A stretch of DNA of 64,000 nt, from contig NZ_JAFJSY010000013.1 in assembly GCF_019857225.1 (NCBI RefSeq), positions 1 through 64,000 on the forward strand, given 5' to 3'. The position numbers and the translations under genes are program-made. The DNA comes from Streptomyces plumbidurans (lineage in GTDB: Bacteria > Actinomycetota > Actinomycetes > Streptomycetales > Streptomycetaceae). This document shows positions 33,107-36,320 of the stretch, piece by piece. A model generated the notes under the pieces. It did not search any database. It was not told where the DNA came from and was given only the letters and a program-made list of their open reading frames with translations. Within the stretch, counting starts at the first letter, position 1, and each line of letters opens with the position of its first letter.

Positions 33107-34597
33107 TCAACCGGTTTTCGTGCAGGCGTGGCCGTTCAGCGTGAAGCCGTACGGCGGGGAGTTCTTGCTCTGCCAGGACGCCAGGAAGCCGAAGGTGAGG
33201 GTGCCGCCGGCGGAGACGGAGCTGTTGTAGTCGGCGGCGGTGGCGGTGACCCGGGAGCCGGTCTGGGCGACGGTCGCGTCCCACATCTGGCCGACCTGCT
33301 GGCCGTCCGGGAAGGACCACGCCACCCGCCAGGTGTCGAGGGCGTCGGTGGTGGTGACGGAGACGGTGGCCTGGAATCCGTCGGGCCACTGGCTGTCCAG
33401 CCGGTACGCGACCGTGCAGGCGGCCGGTTCGCTGCGGTCGGGGACCGGCTTGCCCGTGGCCGTCGAGGAAGTCGAGGAAGTGGTGCCCTGGGGTTCCGGG
33501 TCGGAGTTCCTCGCGCCCGAGGCGGTCTTCGGCTCGGCGCGCGTGGTGGACGGTGACGGGGTGACGGACGGCGACGCGGTGACGGAGGGCAGGGACGGCC
33601 GGGGAGCCGCCACAGGGGAGCTGTCGGCCGGCGAGTCCCCCGCCGCATCGTCGTCGCCGGAGCCGAACGGCATCAGCGACACGGCCAGCGCGAGCAGTGA
33701 CACGGCGACGGCGGCGGCGAGCAGGCCGCCGCGCAGGACGCGCACTCGGTTCGTACCGTTCTTCGGCTCGCCGCCCTCGCCGTCGGCCGGTTCCGGGCGC
33801 CCGGCGCCGAGCCGCACCTCGGCCGCGCGGCGGCGGCGCTCCAGATAGGCGAGCGCGCCCCAGCCGATGACCCCGCCGGCGAGGGCGGCGGACAGTCCGC
33901 CGCCCTGCGGGCGCAGACCGGCGGCGGTCTCCGCGCAGTCCACGCAGGTGGCCAGGTGCCGCGAGAGGTCGGCCGGGACGTCGGCGGCGGGTGAGCGGGT
34001 GACCGCGTCGAGGAGCCGGGCGTAGCTGCGGCACTCCGTGTCCATCGGTGTGTCGCGCTGGGCGCGGCGACAGCGGTCGCGGAACAGGCCGCGCACCTGG
34101 GTGAGTTCGTCGGCCACGGAGGCGGGGTCGAGGCCGAGCCTGCGGGCCGCCACGGGCAGCGGCAGCGCCTCCACCTCGGCCAGCCACAGCAGCGCCGCGT
34201 CCGGTTCCTGCAGATCGCGCAGCGCGCGCAGGGCGAGCGGGCGGCGCAACGGGAGTCCGGTGTAGCGCGCGGGCTTGTCCGAGTTGAGCCACAGGCGCAG
34301 GTCGGGGTCGAGGTCGTGTCCTCGTCCGCCGGCCTCCCAGGCCGCCGCCGTGGTGCGTACGGCGGTCAGCAGCAGGGGTATCGCGGGCAGGCGGGGCGAG
34401 CGGCGGCCGCCGCTGCGGGCGCCGCTCGCCCCGGTGGCGCGGACCTCGCCGATGCCGAGCGCGAACGCCTCGGTGGCGAGTTGGGTGGCCGGGGCCGAGC
34501 CCGCGGTGCACAGGTCGGCGTAGGAAAGGACCGCGTCCCAGCACTCGGAGAACAGCGCGGCCTCGGCGGCGTCCTTCGGGGTCGGCAGGTCGGGCAT
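33107..34597 (-). CDS. Sigma-like / zinc-finger anti-sigma-like / membrane / CBM2 fusion protein
   Basis: 496 aa. Residues 1-80 and 120-185 look like sigma-70 regions 2 and 4 (ATEAFALGIGEVRATG; LALRALRDLQEPDAALLWLA; LPLPVAARRLGLDPASVADE). Residues 185-230 hold a zf-HC2 anti-sigma motif: Cys189, then His214-x3-Cys218-x2-Cys221. Hydrophobic spans occur at 233-252 and 290-309. A Ser/Thr/Pro linker (320-390) leads to a CBM2 cellulose-binding domain (392-496) with flanking Cys394 and Cys492 for the usual disulfide and aromatic residues (Trp404, Trp423, Trp439, Trp475). A cytosolic regulator with an extracellular polysaccharide sensor is implied, but the topology depends on whether the first span is real. 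Promoter DNA contacts are not verified. Confidence 0.72.
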   Translation of the reverse strand: MPDLPTPKDAAEAALFSECWDAVLSYADLCTAGSAPATQLATEAFALGIGEVRATGASGARSGGRRSPRLPAIPLLLTAVRTTAAAWEAGGRGHDLDPDLRLWLNSDKPARYTGLPLRRPLALRALRDLQEPDAALLWLAEVEALPLPVAARRLGLDPASVADELTQVRGLFRDRCRRAQRDTPMDTECRSYARLLDAVTRSPAADVPADLSRHLATCVDCAETAAGLRPQGGGLSAALAGGVIGWGALAYLERRRRAAEVRLGAGRPEPADGEGGEPKNGTNRVRVLRGGLLAAAVAVSLLALAVSLMPFGSGDDDAAGDSPADSSPVAAPRPSLPSVTASPSVTPSPSTTRAEPKTASGARNSDPEPQGTTSSTSSTATGKPVPDRSEPAACTVAYRLDSQWPDGFQATVSVTTTDALDTWRVAWSFPDGQQVGQMWDATVAQTGSRVTATAADYNSSVSAGGTLTFGFLASWQSKNSPPYGFTLNGHACTKTG

Positions 34598-34814
34598 GGG
34601 TCTCCTGCATTCACAAGCGAGGTCAACTCACCATGTCGGCAAAGGAGTTGGGGGGAACCTCGCGGCAGGCAGGAGCCTTGCACGTATCTCTCGCGACTGA
34701 CAAGCGCTGTGTTCGGTTGTCCCGGCAGACACCTGCGCGGCCCGTGGCGCGGCCCAACTCCAGCCTCACGTACGCAAGGAGACCATGTTTTGACTCACCG
34801 TGCCCAGGGGTCGC
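34598..34814. other. Intergenic region before the CBM2 fusion gene
   Basis: 217 bp. The plus strand contains a good ribosome site (AAGGAG) followed by ATG-TTT-TGA, a two-codon start-stop element at 34785-34793, pointing away from both neighbouring minus-strand genes. Nothing else recognised. Confidence 0.4.
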
Positions 34815-36152
34815 TCAGACCTCCGCCGCCTTCGCCGACTCCACCTCGTCCCGGGCCGGAAGGCTGTCCATGAAGGAGCTGACGGAGAAGACGGCGCGGC
34901 CGGGTCCGGGCGGGCCGTAGCCGGGGGGCGAGGACAGGCCGAAGTCCTCCATGGTCTGGCGGTAGGCCTGCAGCAGCCGGATGTGGTACTCCAGCGGGGC
35001 GCCGTCGGGGTTGGTCTTGCCGAGCGGGGTGGTGGGCTCGGGGCACCAGGTGGTGAAGCGGGGCGTGATGCCGTGCGACATGAAGAACCGCAGTCCCTCG
35101 GTGGTGGAGGCGATGGCCTCGTCGACGGTCTTGAAGCCGAAGGGTTCGGCCATCTCCACGCCCGCGACGAAGTTGGGGATGACGTTGCGCGCGCCGAAGA
35201 CGTCGGCGGAGTCGAGGATGCGCTTGTGCCACTCGTCCCGGCCGACGTACCGCTCCTTGCCGGGGCAGTACATCTTGAACAGATACTCGTCCCACACCTC
35301 GAAGTTGGGGTGGTAGATCTGCACACCGTAGTCCTTGAACCGCTGCACGTCGTCCTTGGGCAGCGCCTGTGCGACGACCTTGCCGATCCAGCGGCCCGGG
35401 AAGCGCTCCTCGATGGCCTTGGCGTAGTGCCCGTAGAAGTCGGCCTCGTCCCGTCCGGAGACGGTCTTGGTGATCGCGCCGCCGGTCAGCGTGTAGGCGG
35501 TGGACGCCTTGGCGGTGTCGTACCGGTCGATGATCTCCAGCGCCTCCAGGACCTCTTCCACGTCCTTGACGCCGGTGTACGGCCGCCCGGCCGCCTTGTG
35601 CTGGCGCCAGTTGTGGTTGATGTCGCAGTACTGGCACTCCTCCTTGGCGCCGAAGTACTGGCAGACGCGGAAGACGGTGAGGTAGATGAGGTAGCCCCAC
35701 TGGATGGTGGGGGCCACCTCCATCACGGACTTCCCGTTGGAGAGGGTGTGCCGGTAGTACTCGGGCATGGGCGGCACGCCGACGTCCGAGATCCGCTTGC
35801 CGTCCAGGTAGAGGCCGAGCACGCCGTGCTCGTCGGCGGCGACGCGGTAGGGCGAGGCCGGGTTCACGCGCACGGAGACGACGGTACGGCGCAGGTCGTA
35901 CGGTCCGCCGGTGAGGATGATCTCCTCCGGCGGGCGCCGCAGAGCGGCCTCGCCCAGCTCCGGCAGTGTCTGGTGGTCGAAGGAGAAGATGAAGTAGGAC
36001 TTCGGCTTGACCTCGCCGGACTCGTTGTCGCTCAGCGCGGACGGGTCGAAGGCCACGCCTCCTCGCAGCAGGTCCTCCTTGAAGACGGCTTCCCGCGGTA
36101 CATGCGGGAACCGCTCCATCAGATCCTCGACCAGTGCGGTACGGCTGCCCAT
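34815..36152 (-). CDS. Radical SAM protein with atypical CX8CX2C cluster motif
   Basis: 445 aa from ATG 36152 (GGGAGGAG upstream). Cys164, Cys173 and Cys176 lie in CQYFGAKEECQYC, i.e. CX8CX2C instead of the canonical CX3CX2C. Beyond it a TIM-barrel pattern follows (TLTGGAITKTVSGRDEADFY, WIGKVVAQALPKD, FGARNVIPNFVAGVEMAE, then TPRFTTWCPEPTTPLGKTNP). It should use a [4Fe-4S] cluster and S-adenosylmethionine to form a 5'-deoxyadenosyl radical. The first 110 residues form an extra N-terminal domain. No partner enzymes or precursor peptide adjoin, so the substrate is unknown. Independent gene, 217 bp upstream of the CBM2 fusion. Confidence 0.82.
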   Translation of the reverse strand: MGSRTALVEDLMERFPHVPREAVFKEDLLRGGVAFDPSALSDNESGEVKPKSYFIFSFDHQTLPELGEAALRRPPEEIILTGGPYDLRRTVVSVRVNPASPYRVAADEHGVLGLYLDGKRISDVGVPPMPEYYRHTLSNGKSVMEVAPTIQWGYLIYLTVFRVCQYFGAKEECQYCDINHNWRQHKAAGRPYTGVKDVEEVLEALEIIDRYDTAKASTAYTLTGGAITKTVSGRDEADFYGHYAKAIEERFPGRWIGKVVAQALPKDDVQRFKDYGVQIYHPNFEVWDEYLFKMYCPGKERYVGRDEWHKRILDSADVFGARNVIPNFVAGVEMAEPFGFKTVDEAIASTTEGLRFFMSHGITPRFTTWCPEPTTPLGKTNPDGAPLEYHIRLLQAYRQTMEDFGLSSPPGYGPPGPGRAVFSVSSFMDSLPARDEVESAKAAEV

Positions 36153-36320
36153 CCCCACGCTCCTCCCGGTTCGGACGTACGACTCCTCACGGTATGCCCT
36201 CGCCCGTGCGTCAGCCGTGGCGGGGCCCCCGACGGTGCGCAACATGTCCCGGTACGGGAGGTTTGGCGGGAGCAGCGGGCCGGGCACGGGGGTGCCTCAG
36301 GCCCAGGTGAGTGGCAGGGC

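What the first reader, a model, noticed from the sequence alone, without database searches (positions are those of the whole stretch)
33107..34597. Single-chain sigma-like, anti-sigma zinc-finger, membrane and cellulose-binding protein
One 496-aa reading frame appears to join sigma-70 region 2/4-like helices, a zf-HC2 motif (His214-x3-Cys218-x2-Cys221), one or two membrane spans, and a CBM2 with Cys394/Cys492. A sigma and its anti-sigma in one polypeptide with an external polysaccharide-binding tail would be an unusual carbohydrate sensor. The zinc finger and CBM2 are seen directly; the sigma-like assignment is weaker. Whether 233-252 is a true span decides if the CBM2 is outside.
Basis: partly seen in the sequence, partly recalled or inferred. 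Interest (0 to 1): 0.7.

Follow-up and report, generated by a model that had tools for sequence, protein, structure and literature searches.

The report
Cellulose-binding receptor with mock sigma factor
This Streptomyces membrane protein carries a cellulose-binding domain outside the cell and, inside, a fused sigma-factor/anti-sigma-factor unit whose sigma half keeps its descent but has lost the residues it would need to run transcription, so it is probably a carbohydrate receptor that signals by another route.

Summary
The ORF is real. It lies on the minus strand (34597..33107, 496 aa), and 80 named Streptomyces orthologs were fetched (257 confirmed hits). Sigma2 and sigma4 homology, which Pfam misses, is supported by profile-profile alignment (95.8% against bona fide ECFs; decoys at most 0.2%). 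The anti-sigma zinc motif C189-H214-C218-C221 is invariant in 81/81. Segment 233-252 is helix 4 of the anti-sigma domain, not a span. The single span is about 290-312, so the CBM2 is outside. The CBM2 resembles C. fimi Cex CBM2a, and its three cellulose-contact aromatics are invariant.

The layout itself is known: ECF52 (SCO4117) and ECF53 are fused sigma/zinc-finger/membrane/sugar-binding proteins. What differs is the sigma part. On a tree built without the relevant columns, this protein falls in a 30-row clade (100/99) beside ECF52, with CBM2, ricin-type or laminin-G-type tails. The conserved acidic pair of sigma region 2.2 is absent in 28/30 of its members, against 0/28 in ECF52, a related intact group and ordinary ECFs. 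The -35 recognition helix has turned acidic, yet the domain is under purifying selection.

Best reading: a carbohydrate receptor whose sigma mimic acts by partner switching (PhyR-like) rather than as a sigma factor. The partner and output are unknown.

The parts
33107..34597 (-). whole CDS, 496 aa, ATG at 34597, stop at 33107-33109
   Evidence: ATG start in 80/80 named orthologs
34310..34576 (-). residues 8-96: sigma region 2-like domain, with the region 2.2 acidic motif and the basic region 2.4 surface lost
   Evidence: hhalign vs ECF profile; residue counts; dN/dS about 0.30
34049..34243 (-). residues 119-183: sigma region 4-like helix-turn-helix with an acidic recognition helix
   Evidence: Pfam Sigma70_r4_2 0.086; PDB profile hits to SigR, SigH, SigF, SigE; net charge counts
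33902..34048 (-). residues 184-232: zinc anti-sigma domain, helices 1-3, ligands C189, H214, C218, C221
   Evidence: invariant in 81/81; aligned to ECF52 zf-HC2
   Evidence: 97% mean column conservation; dN/dS about 0.10; sub-threshold hydropathy; homologous LAExVLGWGAxxYLESR in single-span ricin paralogs
33662..33730 (-). residues 290-312: the single transmembrane helix (N-in, C-out)
   Evidence: helix 285-307 in the AF2 model (low confidence there)
33425..33661 (-). residues 313-391: extracellular Ser/Thr/Pro-rich linker, hardly conserved
   Evidence: 52% mean column conservation; dN/dS about 0.95
33110..33424 (-). residues 392-496: CBM2, C394-C492 cysteine pair, aromatics W404, W439, Y457
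   Evidence: Pfam 1e-27; closest solved structures are C. fimi Cex CBM2a 6qfs and 1exg, E 3e-21 and 1e-20; aromatics invariant in 81/81; AF2 pLDDT about 79-90
34678..34705 (-). conserved upstream block GCTTGTCAGTTGTG-N7-CGTGAAA (window copy has 3 mismatches), probable promoter or operator
   Evidence: alignment of upstream regions; one match per genome in 10 of 37 genomes, each upstream of the ortholog
34598..34673 (-). conserved leader with inverted repeat GCGAGG..CAACTC / GAGTTG.CCTCGC reaching the Shine-Dalgarno
   Evidence: (fold z -3.4); no useful covariation, so RNA or DNA role unresolved

Best explanation
A single-pass membrane receptor (N-terminus in the cytosol, CBM2 outside) that descends from an ECF52-like fused sigma/anti-sigma receptor but whose sigma half has become a sigma mimic. 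At rest the mimic is presumably clasped by its own zinc anti-sigma domain (helices 1-3 on sigma4, helix 4 on sigma2). Binding of the external CBM2 to cellulose, or to a cellulose-like glycan including the hypha's own, is relayed through the span, most likely by cleavage as for membrane anti-sigma factors. It frees either the mimic or the anti-sigma domain, which then acts by exchanging protein partners (a real ECF sigma or its anti-sigma factor), as PhyR does, not by leading RNA polymerase to promoters. Shown here: descent, layout, topology, conserved zinc ligands and CBM2 aromatics, clade-wide loss of sigma contact residues, purifying selection. Inferred: cis-inhibition, ligand, cleavage. Pure inference: partner switching and its partner.
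For: Profile-profile match to ECFs (95.8%) and to ECF52 including the zinc domain (98.2%, 234 columns), decoys at most 0.2%. Direct hit of the ECF52 protein to this gene, E=4.3e-9. Region 2.2 acidic pair absent in 28/30 of the clade versus 0/28 elsewhere. Recognition-helix net charge -1.2 versus +0.9 to +2.4, and -2.3 in this family. Loss maps to one branch, 100/99, on a tree built without those columns. Yet dN/dS is 0.1-0.34 across the cytosolic part and zinc ligands are 81/81. One span, positive side inside. CBM2a-type aromatics 81/81. Published precedents: PhyR's degenerate sigma-like domain acts as an anti-anti-sigma (PMC8103513); class I anti-sigma helix 4 binds sigma regions 2.1/2.2 and helix 1 binds sigma4 (PMC7406223).
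Against: No partner, regulon or cellulase gene is linked to the locus. The conserved neighbour is a radical-SAM gene (80/80), with no CebR box in the window. ECF52 itself cannot be the obligatory partner: G027 (3 contigs, 99% complete) has the ortholog but no ECF52-level hit. Some functional-type ECF52s also lack the Lys/Arg of the -35 helix, so that residue alone is not diagnostic. AF2 models of the cytosolic part are of low confidence, and Foldseek hits, though mostly ECF sigmas at the top, are not significant (best E 0.13).
Confidence: 0.45

Rival explanations
1. It is a genuine though divergent ECF sigma factor of the ECF52/ECF53 type: binding of glycan outside triggers proteolysis, the zinc anti-sigma domain is removed and the sigma domain directs RNA polymerase to a small regulon.
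For: Common descent with ECF52 over sigma2, sigma4 and zinc domain. SCO4117 deletion and truncation phenotypes support this mechanism for ECF52 (PMC5826349). ECFs are diverse and the contact residues were judged by alignment only. A conserved block upstream of the gene could be an autoregulated promoter.
Against: Region 2.2 acidic pair lost (28/30 of the clade, both positions), basic region 2.4 and -35 helix surfaces neutral or acidic. Pfam finds no Sigma70_r2 here but does in ECF52 (9e-13). The conserved upstream block occurs only once per genome, so no regulon shares it.
Confidence: 0.25
2. The cytosolic half is only an anchor or assembly scaffold. The protein is a surface cellulose- or matrix-binding adhesin and does not signal.
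For: The CBM2 is well formed and its aromatics are invariant. No partner gene is conserved beside it apart from a radical-SAM gene. The external linker evolves freely.
Against: The cytosolic part, above all anti-sigma helix 4 (97% conserved, dN/dS about 0.10), is more constrained than the CBM2 (dN/dS about 0.66), which an inert anchor would not need. The same cytosolic module is paired with ricin-type and laminin-G-type lectins in paralogs, the pattern of a receptor series.
Confidence: 0.15
3. The fused unit acts mainly through its anti-sigma domain: the mimic plugs the domain in the resting state, and on ligand binding the domain is exposed and captures a real ECF sigma factor, so the receptor is a ligand-controlled anti-sigma factor.
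For: Zinc ligands and helix 4 are the most constrained features (81/81; [quoted passage not shown]
Against: No partner known; one ortholog (G003, L016) lacks residues about 187-231 with the zinc ligands although helix 4, span and CBM2 remain.
Confidence: 0.15

Closest known systems
ECF52 sigma factors (SCO4117 of S. coelicolor)
   Same: Same order of parts: sigma2-sigma4, zinc anti-sigma domain, one span, Pro-rich linker, external carbohydrate-binding domain. Homologous over the whole cytosolic part. An ECF52 copy lies in the same genome (L165).
   Different: ECF52 keeps the region 2.2 acidic motif, basic surfaces and a Pfam-detectable sigma2, and ends in NPCBM. The window protein lacks those and ends in CBM2. 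It falls in a sister clade, not inside ECF52.
ECF53 and ECF48 sigma factors with fused membrane anti-sigma domains
   Same: Published as C-terminal fusions with zinc finger and one or two spans, some with predicted glycosidase or carbohydrate-binding domains (PMC8999054, PMC10766802).
   Different: Reference sequences could not be retrieved, so membership was not tested. The intact group found here (L211-L217, L219, L224, L225) keeps the sigma motif.
PhyR of alphaproteobacteria
   Same: A sigma-like domain whose promoter- and RNAP-contact regions are degenerate and which acts as a sigma mimic (PMC8103513).
   Different: No receiver domain, no Pfam PhyR_sigma2 hit, different lineage. Here the anti-sigma domain is in the same chain and the sensor is a lectin.
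CBM2a of Cellulomonas fimi Cex
   Same: Closest solved structures (6qfs, 1exg; E 3e-21 and 1e-20). The Trp17/Trp54/Trp72 positions correspond to W404/W439/Y457 (numbering from own knowledge).
   Different: Attached to a membrane receptor, not to an enzyme; third aromatic is Tyr.
RsgI/sigma-I of Clostridium thermocellum
   Same: Extracellular polysaccharide-binding domain controls a sigma factor through a membrane anti-sigma protein (PMC10766802).
   Different: Two proteins, different anti-sigma fold, working sigma factor.

Membership tests
ECF52 (SCO4117 type) | ECF sigma2 and sigma4 recognised by family models | tested here: not met
   Window: no Sigma70_r2, r4_2 at 0.086 below cut-off. Control ECF52 L165: r2 9.3e-13.
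ECF52 (SCO4117 type) | zinc finger after sigma4 | tested here: met
   C189, H214, C218, C221 invariant 81/81; aligned with ECF52 zf
ECF52 (SCO4117 type) | transmembrane helix and Pro-rich extension | tested here: met
   one span 290-312; Ser/Thr/Pro-rich linker 313-391
ECF52 (SCO4117 type) | external carbohydrate-binding domain (NPCBM, smart00776, in SCO4117) | tested here: inconclusive
   a carbohydrate-binding domain is present but it is CBM2, not NPCBM
ECF52 (SCO4117 type) | falls within the ECF52 clade | tested here: not met
   ECF52 forms its own branch (90/87); window sits in the sister 30-row clade (100/99)
functional ECF sigma factor | region 2.2 acidic core-RNAP motif | tested here: not met
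   T38/Q39 in place of E/D-D; Q39 in 70/81 orthologs, D/E there in 7/81; 28/30 of clade have neither acidic residue
functional ECF sigma factor | basic -35 recognition helix | tested here: not met
   net charge 158-168 is -2.3 against +2.4 in ECFs
functional ECF sigma factor | binds RNAP core and initiates transcription | not testable with these tools
   needs biochemistry
class I (zinc) anti-sigma domain | Hx3Cx2C across helices 2 and 3, then helix 4 | tested here: met
   H214-x3-C218-x2-C221 and helix 233-262; definition from PMC7406223
class I (zinc) anti-sigma domain | binds a sigma domain | not testable with these tools
   in-cis contact inferred from family structures; AF2 model too uncertain
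CBM2 | Pfam CBM_2 above cut-off, terminal Cys pair, surface aromatics | tested here: met
   96.8 bits vs 24; C394, C492, W404, W439, Y457 81/81
PhyR | sigma-like domain plus receiver domain | tested here: not met
   only CBM_2 and a weak Sigma70_r4_2 are found at E up to 10
ECF53 | classification model of ECF53 | not tested
   model and reference sequence not available here; classification paper not held

The most novel reading that the evidence does not exclude
A whole clade of Streptomyces membrane receptors, sister to ECF52 and present in several copies per genome with CBM2, ricin-type or laminin-G-type sensors, has turned a fused sigma/anti-sigma unit into a sigma mimic clasped by its own anti-sigma domain. 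It signals extracellular carbohydrate by switching protein partners: a one-chain, lectin-gated counterpart of PhyR.
Probability: 0.35. Interest if true: 0.75.

Novelty: new variant of a known kind. Interest (0 to 1): 0.55.

Why it matters
Fused sigma/anti-sigma receptors were assumed to release a working sigma factor. A large, conserved sister clade in which the sigma half has lost its transcription contacts, while the anti-sigma half and a choice of lectins are kept, would be a second case of sigma mimicry outside the alphaproteobacterial PhyR system. It would give a direct entry to how Streptomyces senses plant or self-made polysaccharides. RefSeq names a plasmid relative only 'cellulose binding domain-containing protein', so the signalling half goes unseen in annotation.

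Tried and rejected
Second span at 233-252: rejected (hydropathy, homology to a cytosolic helix in single-span paralogs). Working sigma factor: demoted on residue evidence. ECF52 as obligatory partner: rejected by G027. Shared regulon through the conserved upstream block: pattern found once per genome only. Cellulase link: no CebR box in the window. The ortholog co-occurs with GH48 in 14/16 versus 6/21 Streptomyces genomes (Fisher p=0.0007), but kinship is not corrected for and the window's own genome has no GH48, so this is a hint only. Structured leader RNA: favourable fold (z -3.4) but RNAalifold finds almost no covariation and no Rfam match: unresolved. AlphaFold/Foldseek: too uncertain to decide.

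Full report
THE GENE. The finding's interval holds a 496-aa ORF on the minus strand, 34597 to 33107. It is not a chance frame. Fourteen genomes of the same genus hold full-length orthologs at 63-75% identity, and a fifteenth (G003) a shortened one. A scan of GTDB genomes confirmed 257 relatives, of which the best 80, all Streptomyces, were fetched; all 80 start with ATG. A radical-SAM gene (NCBIfam NF045502) lies directly upstream on the same strand in 80/80; other neighbours (RsgA GTPase, Ada/AlkA-type and Ogt-type DNA repair genes, a hydroxyacid dehydrogenase, an FAD oxidoreductase) are kept in about half to seven eighths of the loci.

THE PARTS. The CBM2 is unambiguous (Pfam 1e-27). Its nearest solved relatives are C. 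fimi Cex CBM2a (6qfs, 1exg), and the three aromatic contact positions (W404, W439, Y457) and the two cysteines are invariant in 81/81 sequences. The zinc motif has four candidate ligands, C189, H214, C218, C221, all 81/81. Pfam does not see a sigma region 2 and sees region 4 only at E=0.086. A profile of this family plus paralogs against 16 ECF sigmas of the same genome gives 95.8% (E 8e-9) across both sigma domains; against the ECF52 protein of this genome the orthologs alone give 98.2% across 234 columns including the zinc domain. Orthologs alone against the ECF profile give a weaker 39% (E 3e-4). Reversed and shuffled ECF profiles give at most 0.2%. The ECF52 protein also hits this gene directly at E=4.3e-9. 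The same profile against the PDB has ECF sigmas as its seven best hits, though at E 0.02-0.11.

TOPOLOGY. The 233-252 segment never reaches the usual hydropathy threshold in 81 orthologs, while 284-314 always does. It aligns with the LAExVLGWGAxxYLESR helix of ricin-tailed paralogs, most of which have one span further on. And it sits where class I anti-sigma domains carry helix 4 after the Hx3Cx2C motif (PMC7406223). Ten Lys/Arg precede and an acidic stretch follows the span, so the N-terminus is inside and the CBM2 outside.

WHAT IS KNOWN. SCO4117, the founding ECF52, has exactly this order of parts and is a pleiotropic activator of differentiation. Its authors and reviewers suggest release of the sigma domain by proteolysis (PMC5826349, PMC8999054). 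The layout is therefore not new. The ECF52 copy in this genome (L165) ends in an NPCBM domain.

WHAT DIFFERS. Aligned with ordinary ECFs, ECF52 and paralogs, this family lacks the acidic E/D-D pair and Gln of region 2.2, the Arg of region 2.4 present in 16/16 ECFs, and the GT(V)K/R-S motif of the recognition helix, whose net charge is -2.3 here against +2.4. A tree built without those columns puts the window protein with ricin-tailed, laminin-G-tailed and a second CBM2-tailed kind in one clade (30 rows, 100/99), sister to ECF52. In that clade 28/30 have neither acidic residue; in ECF52, the intact third group and ECFs 0/28 do. One caution: some ECF52s also lack the Lys/Arg of the -35 helix, so the region 2.2 motif and overall charge are the better signs. 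Some members of the clade (L220, L227, L228) are long branches and their place is less sure. The sigma-like part is not decaying: dN/dS is about 0.30 (sigma2), 0.31 (sigma4), 0.34 (zinc part) and 0.10 (helix 4), against 0.95 for the external linker. Loss of function residues with strong constraint means re-use.

HOW IT PROBABLY WORKS. The layout fixes the direction: glycan bound outside, message inside. PhyR shows that a sigma-like domain with degenerate RNAP and promoter contacts can work by capturing an anti-sigma factor (PMC8103513). By analogy the freed mimic, or the freed anti-sigma domain, exchanges partners with a real sigma/anti-sigma pair. No partner was identified. ECF52 cannot be indispensable, since G027 has the ortholog without an ECF52-level hit. 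The natural ligand may be plant cellulose or the hypha's own cellulose-like polymer. The locus offers no cellulase link, and the association with GH48 (14/16 versus 6/21 genomes, p=0.0007) is uncorrected for kinship and not met in the window's own genome.

UPSTREAM REGION. The 120 bases before the start are strikingly conserved: a block GCTTGTCAGTTGTG-N7-CGTGAAA, present once per genome in 10 of 37 genomes searched, each time before this gene (the window's copy has three mismatches), and an inverted repeat running into the Shine-Dalgarno. Whether it is a promoter with operator or an RNA leader is open.

LIMITS. AF2 models of the cytosolic part have mean pLDDT 66 or less. Foldseek's best hits are ECF sigmas and sigma/anti-sigma complexes but none is significant.

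Noticed in passing
window 34598-34720, minus strand: Highly conserved non-coding leader upstream of the gene: GCTTGTCAGTTGTG-N7-CGTGAAA block plus inverted repeat GCGAGG..CAACTC/GAGTTG.CCTCGC ending at the Shine-Dalgarno; the block was found only before this gene, once per genome in 10 of 37 genomes.
   Followed up: partly
L016 / L046 (G003:C1, about 698685-700148): An ortholog lacks residues about 187-231 (the whole zinc motif) but keeps helix 4, span and CBM2 in an open frame; its genome also has no match to the conserved upstream block.
   Followed up: partly
L031, L032, L033 (window's own genome C108, C132): Three paralogs in the same genome carry the same sigma-mimic/zinc/span module; ricin-type lectin tails are confirmed by Pfam in L031 and L033.
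   Followed up: yes
L220 and L227: More distant members of the clade: L220 has a laminin-G/concanavalin-like lectin tail; L227 has no recognised tail and keeps a Glu in the region 2.2 motif.
   Followed up: partly
L228:2542-4035 (Streptomyces cadmiisoli plasmid, NZ_CP030074.1): A plasmid-borne, far diverged relative with CBM2, annotated only as 'cellulose binding domain-containing protein'.
   Followed up: partly
L211-L217, L219, L224, L225: A further group of fused sigma/zinc/membrane proteins with intact sigma motif (AEDLVAEAHFRVWRR) and long Pro-rich tails; possibly ECF53.
   Followed up: partly
window 34815-36287, minus strand: Radical-SAM gene (variant_rSAM, NF045502) directly upstream of the gene in 80/80 orthologous loci; no functional link known.
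   Followed up: no
37 Streptomyces genomes: Presence of the ortholog co-occurs with GH48 cellulase (14/16 versus 6/21), not corrected for kinship; the window's own genome lacks GH48.
   Followed up: partly
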